Shown: positions 7,984 through 33,427 of the stretch, piece by piece
Numbering within the stretch: the stretch's first letter is position 1
How the letters are laid out: the number at the start of each line of letters is the position of its first letter
Origin: Candidatus Nomurabacteria bacterium
Lineage (GTDB): Bacteria > Patescibacteriota > Minisyncoccia > Phycocordibacterales > UBA9973
Length of the DNA: 33,600 nt
Direction: 5' to 3'
Assembly: GCA_026395995.1 (NCBI GenBank)
Contig: JAPLXQ010000012.1
Location: forward strand, 1 to 33,600
Program-made: the position numbers and the translations under genes
The notes under the pieces: model-generated
Database searches by the model: none
Told to the model about the DNA's origin: nothing
What the model saw: only the letters and a program-made list of their open reading frames with translations

Positions 7984-8018
7984 AATTTTTTTAATTAATT
8001 TTTATAATTGATTTTATT

Positions 8019-8105
8019 CCTCCTCCCCTTCGCTAAGGGGAGGAATGAGGAGGGGTGCAGAAATTCAACACCCCCACCCGCCTCCCCCTTAGCGAAGGGG
8101 GAGGA
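8019..8105. repeat. Head-to-head pair of CCTCCCCTTCGCTAAGGGGAGG-family palindromic repeats between rplJ and rplL
   Basis: cctcctccccttcgctaaggggaggaatgaggaggggtg...cacccccacccgcctcccccttagcgaagggggaggag; same family as the copies at 27.2-28.4 kb. Confidence 0.85.
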
Positions 8106-9847: not shown

Positions 9848-11140
9848 ATGAATAGAATTTGGCTTATAGCTTTCGGGGATTTTATATCCTTCTGGATATC
9901 TTTTTTTATTATCCTCGGCATACGATATGGTAATCTGTTAAATTACAATATTATCCAAAGACACTTTGTGCCATTTTTAATTTTATACCTTTCTTGGGTA
10001 CTTACTTTTTTCTTATTTGGACTTTATGATTTATTTACAATCAAGCCGACTATCCCCCATTTACGACGTTTTGGTCTAGCACTCCTAGTCTCTTTTATTG
10101 TCGGAATTTTATTCTTCTACCTCGTTTCAATTTTCGGCATTGCACCAAAGACGACACTATTTTATCAAGTCATATCTTTTGGAATAATTTCTTTTTTACT
10201 TCGCCGAGTCGTCTATATTCTTTTTTCTAAACAAATTACAAAACCTGTGATCCTCGTAGGAGAGACTCCATATATAGAAGAATTACACAATACTATCGTA
10301 TCCAATCCTCACCTAGGGCTCACATTAGTTTCTTATACAAAAAATCTTCATGAGTCATTACAAAAATATGCACAATTGAAAAATGCTGTTTTTATTTTTG
10401 AAGGCACCTTACAAGAAATACCCAAAAAAGATATTGTGACTTTATATCAAAACAAAACCGAGATCATCGATGTCGCCGAAGCCTATGAAAGATATTTACA
10501 CAAGGTACCTATTGGCTATATTTCACAAGCTTGGGTCATAGAAAATATAAAAACAAAAAAAGATTTAATTTATAGTTTTATCACTAGAACTTTAGATATC
10601 ATTATTTCTATAATTATCCTCATCGTCTCTTCTCCTTTTACTATCATCAGTGCTATTCTGATTTATTTACAAGACCATGGCCCAATTTTTTATTCTCAAG
10701 AAAGAGTCGGGCTAAATAATAAAGTCTTCAAATTATACAAACTTCGATCAATGATCATTGAATCAGAAAAAAATGGAGCTGTGTGGTCCAAAGCCAATGA
10801 CTCTCGCGTCACCCCTATCGGTAAAATAATCCGAAAATTACACATCGATGAAATACCTCAAATGATTAATATTTTAAAAGGAGAGCTCACCCTCGTAGGC
10901 CCTCGTCCTGAACGCCCAGAATTCGTCACCCCCCTCGAGCAATCCATCCCCCATTACGAACTCCGCCATATCATCCGCCCAGGATTCACCGGCTGGGCAC
11001 AAATAAAATATCACTATGCCAATACGACAGAATCTTCAAAAGAAAAATTTGAGTACGATTTATATTACATAAAAAACAGAAACTTCTTCCTCGACTTCGG
11101 TATCATCTTAAAAACAATTCAAATCATTTTTACGCATTAA
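9848..11140 (+). CDS. Polyprenyl-phosphate sugar-1-phosphate transferase (exopolysaccharide glycosylphosphotransferase, WbaP/WcaJ type)
   Basis: N-terminal TM bundle; C-terminal bacterial sugar transferase domain: 'GPIFYSQERVGLNNKVFKLYKLRSM', 'KLHIDEIPQMINILKGELTLVGPRPERPEFV', 'RPGFTGWAQIKYHY'. Confidence 0.95.
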   Translation: MNRIWLIAFGDFISFWISFFIILGIRYGNLLNYNIIQRHFVPFLILYLSWVLTFFLFGLYDLFTIKPTIPHLRRFGLALLVSFIVGILFFYLVSIFGIAPKTTLFYQVISFGIISFLLRRVVYILFSKQITKPVILVGETPYIEELHNTIVSNPHLGLTLVSYTKNLHESLQKYAQLKNAVFIFEGTLQEIPKKDIVTLYQNKTEIIDVAEAYERYLHKVPIGYISQAWVIENIKTKKDLIYSFITRTLDIIISIIILIVSSPFTIISAILIYLQDHGPIFYSQERVGLNNKVFKLYKLRSMIIESEKNGAVWSKANDSRVTPIGKIIRKLHIDEIPQMINILKGELTLVGPRPERPEFVTPLEQSIPHYELRHIIRPGFTGWAQIKYHYANTTESSKEKFEYDLYYIKNRNFFLDFGIILKTIQIIFTH

Positions 11141-11142
11141 AA

Positions 11143-11403
11143 TTATTTATAAAGATCGTGATCTCCTATAACTAAAAAGGCTACTTCATCTTTATTCTGC
11201 CATTCAAAAACAATTCGAATTTTATAATTAACATAAAAACTATATTGATTTTTAAATCTTCCATGAAGTTTGTGCACTTTTAAGCTTTCATGATTTTTAG
11301 AATCTTTAAATAACTCTATTTTTTCAAAAGCTTCGTCTTGAAGATCTTTTTCCAATTTCTCAAATTTTCTTACAAAAATTGGAGCGTAAATTACTTTTAG
11401 CAT
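11143..11403 (-). CDS. RelE/ParE-superfamily toxin
   Basis: 'MLKVIYAPIFVRKFEKLEKDLQDEAFEKIELFKD...LKVHKLHGRFKNQYSFYVNYKIRIVFEW' RelE-like fold pattern; immediately downstream of an RHH-type antitoxin. Confidence 0.85.
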   Translation of the reverse strand: MLKVIYAPIFVRKFEKLEKDLQDEAFEKIELFKDSKNHESLKVHKLHGRFKNQYSFYVNYKIRIVFEWQNKDEVAFLVIGDHDLYK

Positions 11404-11406
11404 AAA

Positions 11407-11628
11407 TTACTTTATTGTTTTTATTAATTCTCTCAAATTACCAGACAAGCCATTCCCTAGTGAAATTTCCTCTCTAGCACGGAGCACGTCGTTAACAGCT
11501 TCTTCTTCAGCGAGTCGAATTATCGCACGGCGAACAACGTCGGCTTTATTTGAGCCATAGCCACTTTTTATTAAATTTTCTACTGATTCCATCAAGCTAG
11601 CTGATAGGGGTACAGATATTGTAGTCAT
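11407..11628 (-). CDS. Ribbon-helix-helix antitoxin (ParD/CopG-like)
   Basis: 'MTTISVPLSASLMESVENLIKSGYGSNKADVVRRAIIRLAEEEAV': RHH DNA-binding pattern; overlapping TA operon arrangement. Confidence 0.85.
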   Translation of the reverse strand: MTTISVPLSASLMESVENLIKSGYGSNKADVVRRAIIRLAEEEAVNDVLRAREEISLGNGLSGNLRELIKTIK

Positions 11629-11715
11629 ATTTTTATATTTGTATTAAATTATAATATGATATTATCATACTTTATTTTCACTAAAAAGTAAATAGGTCTG
11701 TGGAAAACATCCACC

Positions 11716-11742
11716 TACCCCATAGGCCTTGCCTATGGGGTA
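11716..11742. repeat. Palindromic element P1, copy 1 (loop CTT)
   Basis: taCCCCATAGGC-CTT-GCCTATGGGGta. Confidence 0.9.
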
Positions 11743-11801
11743 GCCACTTCCCAATCCCCTAATTAACTATATTAATACTAAAAATAAACTACTTTTTATA
11801 G

Positions 11802-11843
11802 TTATCCACAATAGTTTGCTTTTATTATTCTTTTTGTTATAAT
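11802..11843 (+). promoter_or_regulatory. Predicted promoter with an upstream DnaA box
   Basis: TTATCCACA (11802-11810), 5-nt gap, -35 TTGCTT (11816-11821), 16-nt spacer, -10 TATAAT (11838-11843). Confidence 0.6.
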
Positions 11844-11870
11844 ATAAACAACTTTGGCTTCGGCCTCCGA

Positions 11871-11892
11871 GAAACCCCCGCAAGGGGGTTTC
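11871..11892. terminator. Strong hairpin with GCAA tetraloop on the + strand
   Basis: GAAACCCCC-GCAA-GGGGGTTTC between a + strand promoter and the convergent PemK-like ORF; no clean U-tract. Confidence 0.55.
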
Positions 11893-11897
11893 GTTGT

Positions 11898-12269
11898 TTA
11901 TATATATTTCTTTACTTCATATCTTATATTTTCAAATTCCTCAATTAAAATAACGCCTATTTTTCTAGTAAGTCTTTTTGTATCGAATAGTCTAATTTGT
12001 GGAATTATAGCTGAAGAATTTGTAGATTTTATTTCTACATACCAAGAACCTTTCTTTTTAATTGAAGTTAAAGGTAGTCCAATAAAGGTATTCAAACTAA
12101 CTTTTTTCAAAACTAAAACAGGTCTTTCAAAGAGCTCATGTTTACCGTCCTGTTCGCTACCCACATTAATACCCACAGAACAAAACCAAATATCTCTTTC
12201 AGAGACATAAATAGTATTACGATTTTCTAATTCTTTTTTTAATATATTCCAATCATCAAAAGATTTCAC
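11898..12269 (-). CDS. PemK/MazF-family endoribonuclease toxin-like protein with no adjacent antitoxin
   Basis: 'ERDIWFCSVGINVGSEQDGKHELFERPVLVLKKVSLNTFIGLPLTS': PemK/MazF N-terminal pattern (GDIWW..G.N.G.E..K.RPVLV). Confidence 0.85.
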   Translation of the reverse strand: MKSFDDWNILKKELENRNTIYVSERDIWFCSVGINVGSEQDGKHELFERPVLVLKKVSLNTFIGLPLTSIKKKGSWYVEIKSTNSSAIIPQIRLFDTKRLTRKIGVILIEEFENIRYEVKKYI

Positions 12270-12307
12270 AATAAAATTATATCAAAAAGATAAAACCATG
12301 CAATCCA

Positions 12308-12330
12308 CCCCATAGGCAAGGCCTATGGGG
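12308..12330. repeat. Palindromic element P1, copy 2 (loop AAG)
   Basis: CCCCATAGGC-AAG-GCCTATGGGG. Confidence 0.9.
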
Positions 12331-12397
12331 TAGGTACCTCCCAATCCCCTAATTAACTATTTTATGCTAAAATGCCTAAATACCAGATATTCTGCAT

Positions 12398-12450
12398 CTC
12401 GATTTCGGTATCATCTTAAAAACAATTCAAATCATTTTTACACATTAAAA
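12398..12450 (+). repeat. Duplicated 3' end of the sugar transferase gene (copy 1)
   Basis: ctcgatttcggtatcatcttaaaaacaattcaaatcatttttacacattaaaa versus the gene's own ctcgacttcggtatcatcttaaaaacaattcaaatcatttttacgcattaaaa at 11090-11142. Confidence 0.95.
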
Positions 12451-12465
12451 TAACTACTTTTATAG

Positions 12466-12507
12466 TTATCCACAATAGATTGCTTTTATTATTATTTTTG
12501 TTATAAT
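12466..12507 (+). promoter_or_regulatory. Predicted promoter with an upstream DnaA box (second copy)
   Basis: TTATCCACA (12466-12474), 5-nt gap, TTGCTT (12480-12485), 16-nt spacer, TATAAT (12502-12507). Confidence 0.6.
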
Positions 12508-12521
12508 ATTTATATTCATTA

Positions 12522-12548
12522 GAAAACGCCCACCTGTGGGGCGTTTTC
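12522..12548. terminator. Hairpin directly downstream of the predicted promoter
   Basis: GAAAACGCCC-acctgtg-GGGCGTTTTC followed by atttta. Confidence 0.65.
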
Positions 12549-12560
12549 ATTTTATAATAA

Positions 12561-13169
12561 TTAATTTATACTTTTTTCAATTATTTTTCTCAATAAATCT
12601 AGATCTACAAAAATAACTCTATCTTTATAAATACTTGTTAAGTTTCTTAATTTTATTGCTAATCTAGACCTGCCTTTTATCATAACTGGACTAGAAAAAA
12701 TGTAAACTCGTGATTGAATATTGTCTTTCATTAATTTATCTACCAATGGTTTAAAATCACCATCTCCAGTAAAAAGTAAAACTCTAACTGCTTTATTTTT
12801 AGAAATTTCTATAACATCAATTGTTAAATCAACATCACAGTTACATTTCCAATCCAATCTTCCTGGTATTTTTTTAATTAATTCATTTTTACAAGTAGGA
12901 CAATCTATAGAATAGATTTTATCTTTTAGACGATACTTTTTAAAGAATTTTGGTTTAATAAAAGAATTTTTAGAAATTATAGAATCAAATTCTTCCGTTC
13001 TTTCTATATCACCCTCCTCAATTCCTAAATAAAAATAATTTCCTTTCGAAGAATATTTAAAAGTTAAATGATCTGCCATCTTTTTCCAGTCAATAACAAA
13101 ACCTAAAAAATCAGCTGTACCTTCAGTATTCTGAACGTCTATAAATGCATAAGTTTCTATTTCTTCCAT
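12561..13169 (-). CDS. NYN-domain (PIN-like, LabA/DUF88-type) putative ribonuclease with a CxxC...CxC zinc-ribbon-like insertion
   Basis: 'YAFIDVQN', 'CDVDLTIDVIE', 'VLLFTGDGDFKPLVDKL' acidic motifs; 'DCPTCKNELIKKIPGRLDWKCNCD'. Confidence 0.85.
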   Translation of the reverse strand: MEEIETYAFIDVQNTEGTADFLGFVIDWKKMADHLTFKYSSKGNYFYLGIEEGDIERTEEFDSIISKNSFIKPKFFKKYRLKDKIYSIDCPTCKNELIKKIPGRLDWKCNCDVDLTIDVIEISKNKAVRVLLFTGDGDFKPLVDKLMKDNIQSRVYIFSSPVMIKGRSRLAIKLRNLTSIYKDRVIFVDLDLLRKIIEKSIN

Positions 13170-13259
13170 TTTTTTATTTTAACAAATTATTTTAAACAAA
13201 TCTATATATATAACGAATTATACCCATTAGAAAGATATTTTATATATTGTTATATTTAC

Positions 13260-13282
13260 CCCCATAGGCAAGGCCTATGGGG
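13260..13282. repeat. Palindromic element P1, copy 3 (loop AAG)
   Basis: CCCCATAGGC-AAG-GCCTATGGGG. Confidence 0.9.
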
Positions 13283-13348
13283 GGCCACTTCCCAATCCCC
13301 TAATTAACTATTTTATGCTAAAATGCCTAAATACCTTATATTCTGCAT

Positions 13349-13400
13349 CTCGACTTTGGTATCATCTTAAAAACAATTCAAATCATTTTTACGCATTAAA
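13349..13400 (+). repeat. Duplicated 3' end of the sugar transferase gene (copy 2), abutting the flippase start codon
   Basis: ctcgactttggtatcatcttaaaaacaattcaaatcatttttacgcattaaa(a), then ATG at 13401. Confidence 0.95.
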
Positions 13401-14849
13401 ATGGAAAAAATTAAAAAATTTCTTTTTATAAATACCAGCACAAAACAAACAGTAATCAAAAATACTTTTTGGTTATTTTTTGGTGAAATTATTGGAAGAA
13501 TTCTAAAGTTAGTAATAGTTGTCTTTTCGACACGCAAGCTCGGAGTTGAAGGTTGGGGTTTGTTTTCATATGCTATGGCATTCATTTCACTTTTCTTTAT
13601 CTTGGGAGATTTTGGAATAAATACTTTTATTACAAAAGAAATGTCTAAAGACAATAATAATAAACACAAATACCTTGCGACATCTATTATCATAAGACTA
13701 TTTATGATCGCTGTATTTTGTTCTACTGCATTATTGCTTGCTCCAAATTTAGGAAAAATAAAACTAGGATTTGGTATTGTTTTTATCTTTACACTATTCT
13801 TTGTCTCTGAATCATTACGTGAAATTGCAATGTCTATAAACCGTTCATTAGAAAAAATGGAGGTTGAAGGATTTTCAAAAATATTAATAAATTTAAGTAT
13901 TACAGTTTTTGGTTTAATTTTATTAATTAATAATGTTGACCCTATATCTCTTGCAATGGCTTATATGATAGGAAGTATTATCTCCACTATTTATATAGTC
14001 TGGTCAATTAGAAAAGAACTTAAAGGAATTGAATGGAAATTCTCCAAAGAGAATTGGAAAGTAATTTATCAATTTTCTTGGCCAATAGTCATTATGAGTT
14101 TTTTTGGATTCCTGTTTAGCTTAGATACTATAATGTTAGGACAAATGAAATCTGCTGTCGATGTTGGCCTATATACAATGGCTCAACGCTTAATTTCAGT
14201 CTTCTCAATAATCCCAGGTTTTATTGGAGCTTCATTGTTCCCTATTCTTTCAAGAAATGAAAACGATAATAATAAACTCGGATATATATTTGAAAAAATA
14301 ATGACTATTATTTTAGCCTTAGGTATTCCTATAACAATCATTGGTGTATTTTTTAGTAAAGAAATTATTTTACTTATAGTCGGACCAGCATATATCGCTG
14401 GGGCCTCAGTATTGGGTGTTTTAATGATTTCAATTCTTGCCTCTTTTCCAAATATATTTCTGACCAATTTAATTTTTTCAAAAAATCTTCAAAAGATCTT
14501 TATCACTGCGACAATATCTGGAGTTTTACTCAATATTCTTTTAAATTTTTGGCTAATACCTAAATACGGTGCACTTGGAGCAGCCATATCTACAACTATA
14601 GCTGAATTATTAATAATGGTTACTAATTGGAAAAGACTAAAGAAAATTATTCCTTTTAGTGTTATTCCTAAGCTTGGTAAAATAGCACTATCAAATATGG
14701 TAATGTTAATAATCATAATTGTATTACACTTGATTGGACTTAATTTTATAATTATTACTTTTATTGCAATAGTTACCTATATATTAATATTAAACATGTT
14801 AGAAGAATCAAACTTCAAAGAAATATATTCTTTAGTAAAGAATCATTAA
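13401..14849 (+). CDS. Polysaccharide/oligosaccharide flippase (Wzx/MOP family)
   Basis: About 12-14 TM helices; 'TFWLFFGEIIGRILKLVIVVFSTRKLGVEGWGLFSYAMAFISLFFILGDFGI' is the typical N-terminus. Confidence 0.9.
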   Translation: MEKIKKFLFINTSTKQTVIKNTFWLFFGEIIGRILKLVIVVFSTRKLGVEGWGLFSYAMAFISLFFILGDFGINTFITKEMSKDNNNKHKYLATSIIIRLFMIAVFCSTALLLAPNLGKIKLGFGIVFIFTLFFVSESLREIAMSINRSLEKMEVEGFSKILINLSITVFGLILLINNVDPISLAMAYMIGSIISTIYIVWSIRKELKGIEWKFSKENWKVIYQFSWPIVIMSFFGFLFSLDTIMLGQMKSAVDVGLYTMAQRLISVFSIIPGFIGASLFPILSRNENDNNKLGYIFEKIMTIILALGIPITIIGVFFSKEIILLIVGPAYIAGASVLGVLMISILASFPNIFLTNLIFSKNLQKIFITATISGVLLNILLNFWLIPKYGALGAAISTTIAELLIMVTNWKRLKKIIPFSVIPKLGKIALSNMVMLIIIIVLHLIGLNFIIITFIAIVTYILILNMLEESNFKEIYSLVKNH

Positions 14850-27234: not shown

Positions 27235-27277
27235 CTCCTCCTCCCCTTCGCCAAGGGGAGGAATGAGGTGGGGTGCT
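27235..27277. repeat. CCTCCCCTTCG..-family palindromic repeat overlapping the stop codon of the adjacent ORF
   Basis: ctcctcctccccttcgccaaggggaggaatgaggtggggtgcta. Confidence 0.85.
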
Positions 27278-32709: not shown

Positions 32710-32730
32710 TGTAGACGTCCGACGTCTACA
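32710..32730. repeat. REP-like palindrome, left copy (contains the RAYT stop codon)
   Basis: TGTAGACGTC-C-GACGTCTACA. Confidence 0.92.
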
Positions 32731-33391
32731 AATCAATAAATTCTTCAGGAGAAATTTCTGACTTATTTCTCCCTTCTCTTAAAATAGAAATAATTTCTTG
32801 TGCATGTTTTGATAACTTCTCAAAACCATTAAACATTTCCAAAATCTTTTCAGCTTCTTTTTCGTTTACTATATAAAAGTTTTTATTCTTATACTCACTT
32901 AAACTTGATCTAATCAAAGACAGTTTGTTTTGTGGAATATTGTGCATTTTATTATTCCACATGACATATGCACAAAGAAGTTCAAAATAATTTTCTTTTT
33001 CAGCAAAAACAGATTTAAACTTACCTTGAAATAATACTCCACTTCTTTTATGTTTATCATTAAAATATCTTGTATATCCACCCTGGAGCCGTTTCATAAA
33101 TTCACTAATACCTCCATCTATTTCTTGTTTCAGTAAAAAATGAAAATGATTTGGATTTAGACAATACATAACAACAGAAACTAGCTTCTCATCTTTTTGT
33201 AGACGTCCGACCTCTACAGAATTATCTCGTAAAATGACTTGTATACTTCGAGTTGGAATCTTATTCGAAAATAATTCTATACTCAATAAAAATCTTTCTA
33301 CATCTTTTTGGTCAGCAAAAATATCTCGCTTGTCGGTACCACGATTATAAATGTGATAATATGACCCAGTTACAAAAGCTTCTTTTCGCAT
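32726..33391 (-). CDS. REP-associated tyrosine transposase (IS200-like, HUH/Y1)
   Basis: 'SYYHIYNRGTDKRDIFADQKD', 'NHFHFLLKQ' HUH motif, 'MKRLQGGYTRYFNDKHKRSGVLFQGKFKSV' Tyr motif. Confidence 0.92.
   Translation of the reverse strand: MRKEAFVTGSYYHIYNRGTDKRDIFADQKDVERFLLSIELFSNKIPTRSIQVILRDNSVEVGRLQKDEKLVSVVMYCLNPNHFHFLLKQEIDGGISEFMKRLQGGYTRYFNDKHKRSGVLFQGKFKSVFAEKENYFELLCAYVMWNNKMHNIPQNKLSLIRSSLSEYKNKNFYIVNEKEAEKILEMFNGFEKLSKHAQEIISILREGRNKSEISPEEFIDL
33198..33218. repeat. REP-like palindrome inside the RAYT coding sequence (one mismatch)
   Basis: TGTAGACGTC-C-GACCTCTACA, translated in the RAYT as part of NSVEVGRLQK. Confidence 0.9.
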
Positions 33392-33406: not shown

Positions 33407-33427
33407 TGTAGACGTCGGACGTCTACA
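33407..33427. repeat. REP-like palindrome, right copy (reverse complement of the left copy)
   Basis: TGTAGACGTC-G-GACGTCTACA. Confidence 0.92.

What the first reader, a model, noticed from the sequence alone, without database searches (positions are those of the whole stretch)
11090..13400. Tandem toxin/RNase cassette array inserted at the 3' end of a sugar transferase gene, with the gene's last ~52 bp duplicated at cassette ends
The end of the transferase gene (ctcgacttcggtatcatcttaaaaacaattcaaatcatttttacgcattaaaa, coding LDFGIILKTIQIIFTH-stop) occurs three times: in the gene (11090-11142), at 12398-12450, and at 13349-13400, where it directly abuts the flippase ATG (stop TAA, one nt, ATG). 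The simplest reading is that transferase and flippase were once adjacent and ~2.3 kb of cargo was inserted between them by events that regenerate the gene end, like att-site duplication or tandem accretion at a gene 3' end. All cargo is minus strand, opposite the operon, and RNase/toxin-like: a RelE-type TA pair, a lone PemK/MazF-like protein and an NYN-domain protein. Each cargo unit is followed by the same palindrome (CCCCATAGGC-NNN-GCCTATGGGG) and linker (cccaatcccctaattaacta...), and two of the three linkers are followed by the transferase-end copy. No integrase is visible in the window, so the mechanism is unknown. This is the best candidate for an undescribed mobile-cassette system here.
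Basis: partly seen in the sequence, partly recalled or inferred. Interest (0 to 1): 0.8.

Follow-up and report, generated by a model that had tools for sequence, protein, structure and literature searches.

The report
Toxin cassettes flanked by gene-end copies
In a tiny-genome candidate-phylum bacterium, small toxin genes have piled up behind a sugar-transferase gene, each followed by a leftover copy of that gene's end; relatives show toxin genes spreading this way at several genes without an integrase of their own, and two of the toxin families carry a conserved, undescribed small RNA.

Summary
The window is one contig of a 760-kb Candidatus Nomurabacteria-like genome. The transferase end occurs at 11090-11143, 12398-12451 and 13349-13402. 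Empty sites (transferase stop, about one base, flippase ATG) are common in relatives. Three more genomes have toxin or Fic cargo between the transferase and extra copies of its end (50-197 bp). Homologues of the cargo at other genes (rpsG end, rpmB end, rsmI start) are also hugged by long direct repeats: 11/56 toxin ORFs against 7/263 control ORFs. The copies differ from the local gene almost only synonymously (55 of 66 changes, about 15 expected), so they are remnants of other functional alleles, not a fixed att site or a simple local duplication.

Best reading: toxin modules spread by host recombination with one-sided homology, leaving long, donor-derived target duplications, as in 'insertion with long target duplication' of restriction-modification genes. 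No dedicated integrase was found. The palindrome is a dispersed RAYT-type REP, not part of the toxin module.

Unexpected: lone PemK and NYN toxins face a conserved small RNA with its own promoter. The PemK RNA covaries strongly, has no Rfam match and occurs in 143 of 397 genomes of the order: a candidate RNA antitoxin.

The parts
9848..11140 (+). Bacterial sugar transferase gene (target gene)
   Evidence: Pfam PF02397 E 1.6e-63
11090..11143 (+). Gene 3' end, copy 1 (functional)
11143..11403 (-). Unit 1 toxin, RelE/HigB-like
   Evidence: Pfam PF05015 E 3.9e-5, just under the curated cut-off; 46 of 146 family genomes have homologues
11407..11628 (-). Unit 1 antitoxin, RHH-like (no Pfam match; assigned by position and sequence look)
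   Evidence: same pair follows the transferase in G074 and in G126 of another genus
11718..11740 (.). REP-like palindrome 1 (CTT loop)
11741..11783 (.). Linker 1 (no gene-end copy follows)
11816..11843 (+). Promoter (TTGCTT - 16 nt - TATAAT) of the PemK-tail RNA
11850..11900 (+). PemK-tail RNA: two hairpins, second is a terminator ending at the pemK stop codon
   Evidence: covariance model R2, E 5.3e-20 (member of the model); covariation
11898..12269 (-). Unit 2 toxin, PemK/MazF-like, no antitoxin gene
   Evidence: Pfam PF02452 E 2.1e-10
12308..12330 (.). REP-like palindrome 2 (AAG loop)
12331..12397 (.). Linker 2
12398..12451 (+). Gene-end copy 2 (remnant; two synonymous differences)
12480..12507 (+). 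Promoter of the NYN-tail RNA
12515..12553 (+). NYN-tail RNA / terminator (TTCATTAGAAAACGCCC...)
   Evidence: terminator; shared by NYN loci of other genomes
12561..13169 (-). Unit 3 toxin/RNase, NYN domain, no antitoxin gene
   Evidence: Pfam PF01936 E 1e-10
13260..13282 (.). REP-like palindrome 3 (AAG loop)
13283..13348 (.). Linker 3
13349..13402 (+). Gene-end copy 3 (remnant; one synonymous difference), abutting the flippase start
13401..14849 (+). Flippase gene (native downstream neighbour)
   Evidence: Pfam PF01943 E 1.1e-37
32726..33391 (-). RAYT/Y1 transposase, flanked by a different palindrome at 32710-32730 and 33407-33427
   Evidence: Pfam PF01797 E 3.1e-9

Best explanation
Small toxin modules were inserted again and again just after the transferase stop codon: a RelE-like/RHH-like pair, and lone PemK or NYN toxins with a convergent small RNA. 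They spread among related Nomurabacteria by ordinary host recombination after DNA uptake. Incoming DNA carries a module next to a piece of the neighbouring gene. Homology on one side guides it to the same gene in the recipient. The other junction is illegitimate, or is made by a single crossover of a circle. The resident (or donor) allele's end is then left behind as a direct repeat beyond the cargo. Repeated events make an array. Shown: recurrent same-site insertion, empty sites, direct repeats of variable length at several loci, allele-like (synonymous) divergence of copies, no integrase in the cargo. Inferred: DNA uptake as the route, the one-sided or Campbell-type event, and selection for insertions that keep the downstream gene's start or terminator.
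For: Empty sites: about eight relatives have transferase stop then flippase ATG after 1 to ~10 nt. Extra copies with cargo: G068 AbiEi/AbiEii then copy; G127 HicA-like pair, RhuM-Fic, Fic, AbiE-like pair, Xre-Panacea with three copies plus a partial one; G132 NYN then a 197-bp copy then Fic. Other loci: direct repeats hug NYN, RelE and PemK modules, made of the rpsG end+terminator, rpmB end+terminator, rsmI start or other terminators. Toxin ORFs flanked 11/56 vs 7/263 controls, p = 2e-5, or 4/260 (p = 2e-6) after removing the three array-cargo ORFs. Allele origin: 47/57 differences synonymous vs 13 expected at the transferase, plus 3/3 rpsG, 4/4 rsmI, 1/2 rpmB; a model in which only the copy drifts freely is also rejected (p = 1e-4; G132 alone 0.001). 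Same-site reuse across species: RelE at rsmI start in G017, G021, G077; at rpmB end in G029, G030; at transferase end in G000, G074, G126. ComEC is present in this genome; recA is in the window (by sequence look).
Against: Units 2 and 3 of this window share identical 5' and 3' borders. That needs an extra step (tandem duplication followed by cargo exchange) or is better explained by a site-specific cassette. Most toxin loci (45/56) show no flanking repeat. In several same-site cases no remnant is seen. Counts pool related copies, so the p-values are optimistic. No donor or intermediate molecule was observed.
Confidence: 0.6

Rival explanations
1. Site-specific tandem accretion: a trans-acting tyrosine recombinase (phage integrase or Xer) integrates circular cassettes at an att site in the transferase end, as for CIME/ICE accretion or dif modules.
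For: Gene 3' ends are classic att sites (general knowledge). Units 2 and 3 of the window share both borders. Most family genomes have at least one tyrosine recombinase.
Against: Copy lengths and 5' ends vary. The same toxins sit at unrelated genes with unrelated repeats, including a gene start. No integrase in any array examined, and none detected in G127. No hit of a degenerate gene-end pattern in viral contigs.
Confidence: 0.14
2. True target-site duplication: a break or transposition-like event (perhaps RAYT/REP single-strand chemistry) duplicates the local sequence around each insert.
For: REP palindromes sit next to several junctions in the window and G127. A RAYT is itself cargo in L133. 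Some repeats are 98% identical.
Against: Synonymous divergence of most gene-derived copies. RAYT/IS200-type elements are not known to duplicate targets (general knowledge). Many repeats have no REP nearby. The cargo core shared with homologues excludes the palindrome.
Confidence: 0.12
3. Local duplication and deletion: unequal crossing-over duplicated a toxin unit with the gene end, and the cargo then diverged or was exchanged.
For: Units 2 and 3 share the promoter region and the palindrome+linker+gene-end module. L128 has two NYN units with 131-bp repeats.
Against: Does not explain first insertion, different cargo families, or allele-like differences between copies.
Confidence: 0.1

Closest known systems
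Insertion with long target duplication (ILTD) of restriction-modification genes (Nobusato et al. 2000, as cited in PMC3031569)
   Same: Selfish addiction-type genes inserted in chromosomes with long, variable direct repeats of the target and no mobility gene; repeats allow tandem amplification
   Different: Cargo here is TA/RNase/Fic in candidate-phylum bacteria; arrays of different cargo; copies are donor-like alleles
Minimal mobile elements (variable cargo between conserved genes, moved by transformation; from memory)
   Same: Different cargo at the same conserved site, no mobility genes, DNA-uptake gene present
   Different: Minimal mobile elements need not leave remnant gene ends
Homology-facilitated illegitimate recombination (e.g. 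PMC3240628)
   Same: One homologous and one illegitimate end
   Different: Not demonstrated here; inferred from anatomy
dif modules of Acinetobacter plasmids (e.g. PMC13141974)
   Same: Small accessory modules, toxin-antitoxin genes included, shuffled in arrays without their own recombinase
   Different: No constant dif-like core; repeats are locus-specific gene ends
Microcystis ParE/ParD-like TA module flanked by 152-bp direct repeats (PMC7935541)
   Same: TA module fenced by long direct repeats downstream of a gene
   Different: Repeats there begin after the neighbour's stop codon; single case
RNA-controlled toxins: AbiF with RCd22 RNA (PMC12373285) and ToxIN type III
   Same: Lone toxin with a structured small RNA
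   Different: Here the RNA is convergent, at the toxin's 3' end; no Rfam match; antitoxin action untested

Membership tests
Insertion with long target duplication | Insert present against empty relatives | tested here: met
   Empty sites in about eight relatives
Insertion with long target duplication | Long, variable direct repeats of the target hug the insert | tested here: met
   25-212 bp at many loci
Insertion with long target duplication | No mobility gene in the insert | tested here: met
   exception L133, where a RAYT is part of the array
Insertion with long target duplication | Copies are duplicates of the local sequence | tested here: inconclusive
   Copies differ synonymously, which suggests another allele
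Site-specific integrative element / CIME accretion | Constant att core with one identity border | tested here: not met
   Variable lengths and different genes
Site-specific integrative element / CIME accretion | Integrase in cis or nearby | tested here: not met
   None among the ORFs after the transferase; one Xer-type recombinase in the genome
Integron gene cassette | attC sites and IntI | tested here: not met
   Repeats are coding gene ends, direct and locus-specific; a single tyrosine recombinase in the genome, elsewhere
dif module | 28-bp Xer sites in alternating orientation | tested here: not met
   Repeats are direct and gene-specific
RAYT/REP | Palindrome dispersed at unrelated sites and flanking a RAYT gene | tested here: met
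   17 of 80 genus genomes; inside truB; flanks or abuts RAYT in L087, L020, L061
Type III toxin-antitoxin (for the PemK RNA) | RNA of tandem repeats upstream of the toxin on the same strand | tested here: not met
   Single RNA, convergent, ending at the toxin stop
Type III toxin-antitoxin (for the PemK RNA) | RNA binds and neutralises the toxin | not testable with these tools
   Needs expression assay

The most novel reading that the evidence does not exclude
The mobile unit is a new class of addiction module: a lone RNase toxin (PemK-like or NYN) with a dedicated, convergently transcribed structured RNA that acts as its antitoxin. It is widespread in one order of candidate-phylum bacteria and spreads between genomes without any recombinase of its own, using pieces of host genes as homology.
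Probability: 0.4. Interest if true: 0.82.

Novelty: new variant of a known kind. Interest (0 to 1): 0.62.

Why it matters
Toxin modules are known to be mobile, but how integrase-free ones move is an old question. Here the repeats keep the codon pattern of functional alleles, which points to exchange of host genes and not to duplication of the local sequence, and gives a test that can be repeated on any genome set. It also shows a recurrent gene-end niche for toxins in reduced-genome bacteria. The conserved RNA at the tail of lone PemK toxins, in 143 of 397 genomes of the order, would explain how these toxins are held in check without a protein antitoxin.

Tried and rejected
att-site model: searched the family for extra copies and for tyrosine recombinases, and viral contigs for the gene-end pattern; nothing supports it. 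Palindrome as cassette end: rejected, because it is dispersed, inside truB, flanks RAYT genes, and is absent from homologous cargo cores. DnaA-box (TTATCCACA) as a cassette-end motif: two copies lie in the array leads, but there is no consistent occurrence at other flanked loci. Small ORF in the PemK RNA: rejected by eye, because hairpin 1 changes length by 8 nt and breaks the frame. Rfam match for the array: none up to E = 1. Phage source: no viral-contig match. Order-level search for the gene-end model gave no further arrays. Mosaic test between single crossover and one-sided replacement was not done: too few informative sites.
Full report
WHAT IS THERE. The window is a whole 33.6-kb contig of a 760,693-base genome; matching records of relatives are mostly titled Candidatus Nomurabacteria or Paceibacterota. 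Between a sugar transferase (9848-11140) and a flippase (13401-14849) lie 2.26 kb with three toxin units on the minus strand. The transferase's last 54 nt occur three times; palindrome, linker and gene end form one module of about 144 nt in units 2 and 3. Unit 1 keeps palindrome and linker but no gene-end copy. Units 2 and 3 also share a start: a promoter (11816-11843, 12480-12507) followed by a hairpin RNA.

EMPTY SITES AND OTHER ARRAYS. A sequence-only model of the gene end (R1) found it in 40 of 147 family genomes. In about eight of them the flippase follows the transferase stop within 1 to ~10 nt, so the two genes were adjacent. Extra copies occur in four genomes: this one, G068 (AbiEi/AbiEii, then a copy, then rfbA), G127 (a HicA-like toxin with partner, RhuM-Fic, Fic, an AbiE-like pair and Xre-Panacea, with three full copies and a partial one) and G132 (NYN, then a 197-bp copy, then Fic). 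G126, of another genus, has the same RelE/RHH pair directly after its transferase, without a distal copy. In G074, the nearest relative, the contig ends inside the array.

THE COPIES ARE REMNANTS OF OTHER ALLELES. Aligned to the local gene, the copies always run to the stop codon but begin at different points, 50 to 197 bp upstream. Over seven copies, 47 of 57 differences are synonymous against 13 expected. Gene-derived repeats at other toxin loci agree: rpsG end 3/3, rsmI start 4/4, rpmB end 1/2. If the copy simply drifted after a local duplication while the gene stayed under selection, about 61% of changes would be synonymous; 83% are (p = 1e-4; G132 alone 0.001). Copies within one genome are related, so these p-values are optimistic, but the direction is the same in every transferase copy.

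IT IS GENERAL. Homologues of the three cargo types elsewhere in the family are often hugged by direct repeats of 25 to 212 bp made of the neighbouring gene's end, start or terminator. Flanked: 11 of 56 toxin ORFs against 7 of 263 control ORFs; of those seven, three are array cargo (two in this window, one in G127) and two are RAYT genes flanked by their own palindromes. Several sites are reused: RelE at the rsmI start in three genomes, at the rpmB end in two, at the transferase end in three.

NO INTEGRASE; WHAT THE PALINDROME IS. This genome has one Xer-type tyrosine recombinase, and G127 has none detected. The gene-end pattern has no match in viral contigs. The palindrome occurs in 17 of 80 genus genomes, once in frame inside truB here, and flanks or abuts RAYT genes in L087, L020 and L061. 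It is therefore a REP. The RAYT in this window has a different palindrome (32710-32730, 33407-33427). Comparison with NYN and PemK homologues puts the mobile core at about 12464-13184 and about 11766-12294, without the palindrome. REPs do sit at or near several cargo/gene-end junctions, in the window and G127, so they may help recombination; that is not shown.

MECHANISM. The simplest account is host recombination after DNA uptake. ComEC is present. A module travels with part of its neighbour gene; homology on one side targets the same gene; the other side joins illegitimately, or a circle integrates by one crossover; a gene end is left over. Keeping the transferase end directly before the flippase start preserves that gene's start region, and keeping terminators preserves neighbours' transcription, so such insertions may be favoured (inference). 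Known precedent: restriction-modification genes inserted with 'long and variable target duplications' (PMC3031569, citing Nobusato et al. 2000, which I could not read). The borders shared by units 2 and 3 need an extra step and are the main weakness.

A NEW SMALL RNA. PemK-like and NYN toxins here have no antitoxin gene. Downstream of PemK, in nearly all loci examined, a promoter reads back toward the toxin and makes a 50-60-nt RNA that in the main class ends at the pemK stop. Sixteen sequences give 15 pairs, 9 with changes on both sides; covariation score 0.459 against 0.136 in shuffles (0 of 500 reach it). No Rfam match in the array region up to E = 1, nor at gathering level in thirteen other PemK loci. 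Model R2 finds it in 143 of 397 genomes of the order. Of 29 of the best places inspected, most face a PemK-like ORF that ends at, or reads through, the RNA, one faces an NYN-like ORF, and a handful have no clear partner (PemK and NYN assignments there are by sequence look). NYN loci have a different convergent RNA. The RelE/RHH pair, which has its own candidate antitoxin, lacks one here. Rfam already holds RNAs named after DUF3800, two of which are matched in G127's contig, and a DUF3800 gene follows the transferase in G135. The RNA as antitoxin is an inference; a convergent regulator or insulator is not excluded.

VERDICT. A real, recurrent phenomenon; a new variant of a known kind (integrase-free insertion with long target duplication), with a possibly more novel RNA-toxin module inside it.

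Noticed in passing
window 11850-11900 and relatives L168-L196, L197-L226: Conserved convergent structured RNA at the 3' end of lone PemK-like toxins, with its own promoter; no Rfam family; in 143 of 397 genomes of the order.
   Followed up: yes
window 12515-12553 and L127-L134, L076, L058: A different conserved convergent RNA/terminator (TCATTAGAAAA...) at the 3' end of NYN toxins.
   Followed up: partly
L012 5059-5081 (own genome C13:113058-113080): REP palindrome inserted in frame inside truB.
   Followed up: partly
window 32726-33391, palindromes 32710-32730 and 33407-33427: RAYT gene flanked by inverted-type palindromes TGTAGACGTC(C/G)GACGTCTACA.
   Followed up: partly
L133 1317-3502: Array terminator-repeat, NYN, repeat, RAYT, repeat: a RAYT as cargo between long direct repeats.
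   Followed up: no
window 11718-11740 versus L056 4070-4092: The palindrome loop is inverted (CTT versus AAG) between two close relatives at the same place.
   Followed up: no
window 8018-8058 and 27236-27276: 41-bp dispersed direct repeat, 95% identical, 19 kb apart; looks like another interspersed repeat family.
   Followed up: no
L071 1899-1961 and 14320-14434: Rfam DUF3800-II and DUF3800-V RNAs in the contig of the G127 toxin array.
   Followed up: no
L174 872-2227: Two PemK genes each preceded by a diverged copy of the same membrane-anchored protein gene (repeat 212 bp).
   Followed up: no
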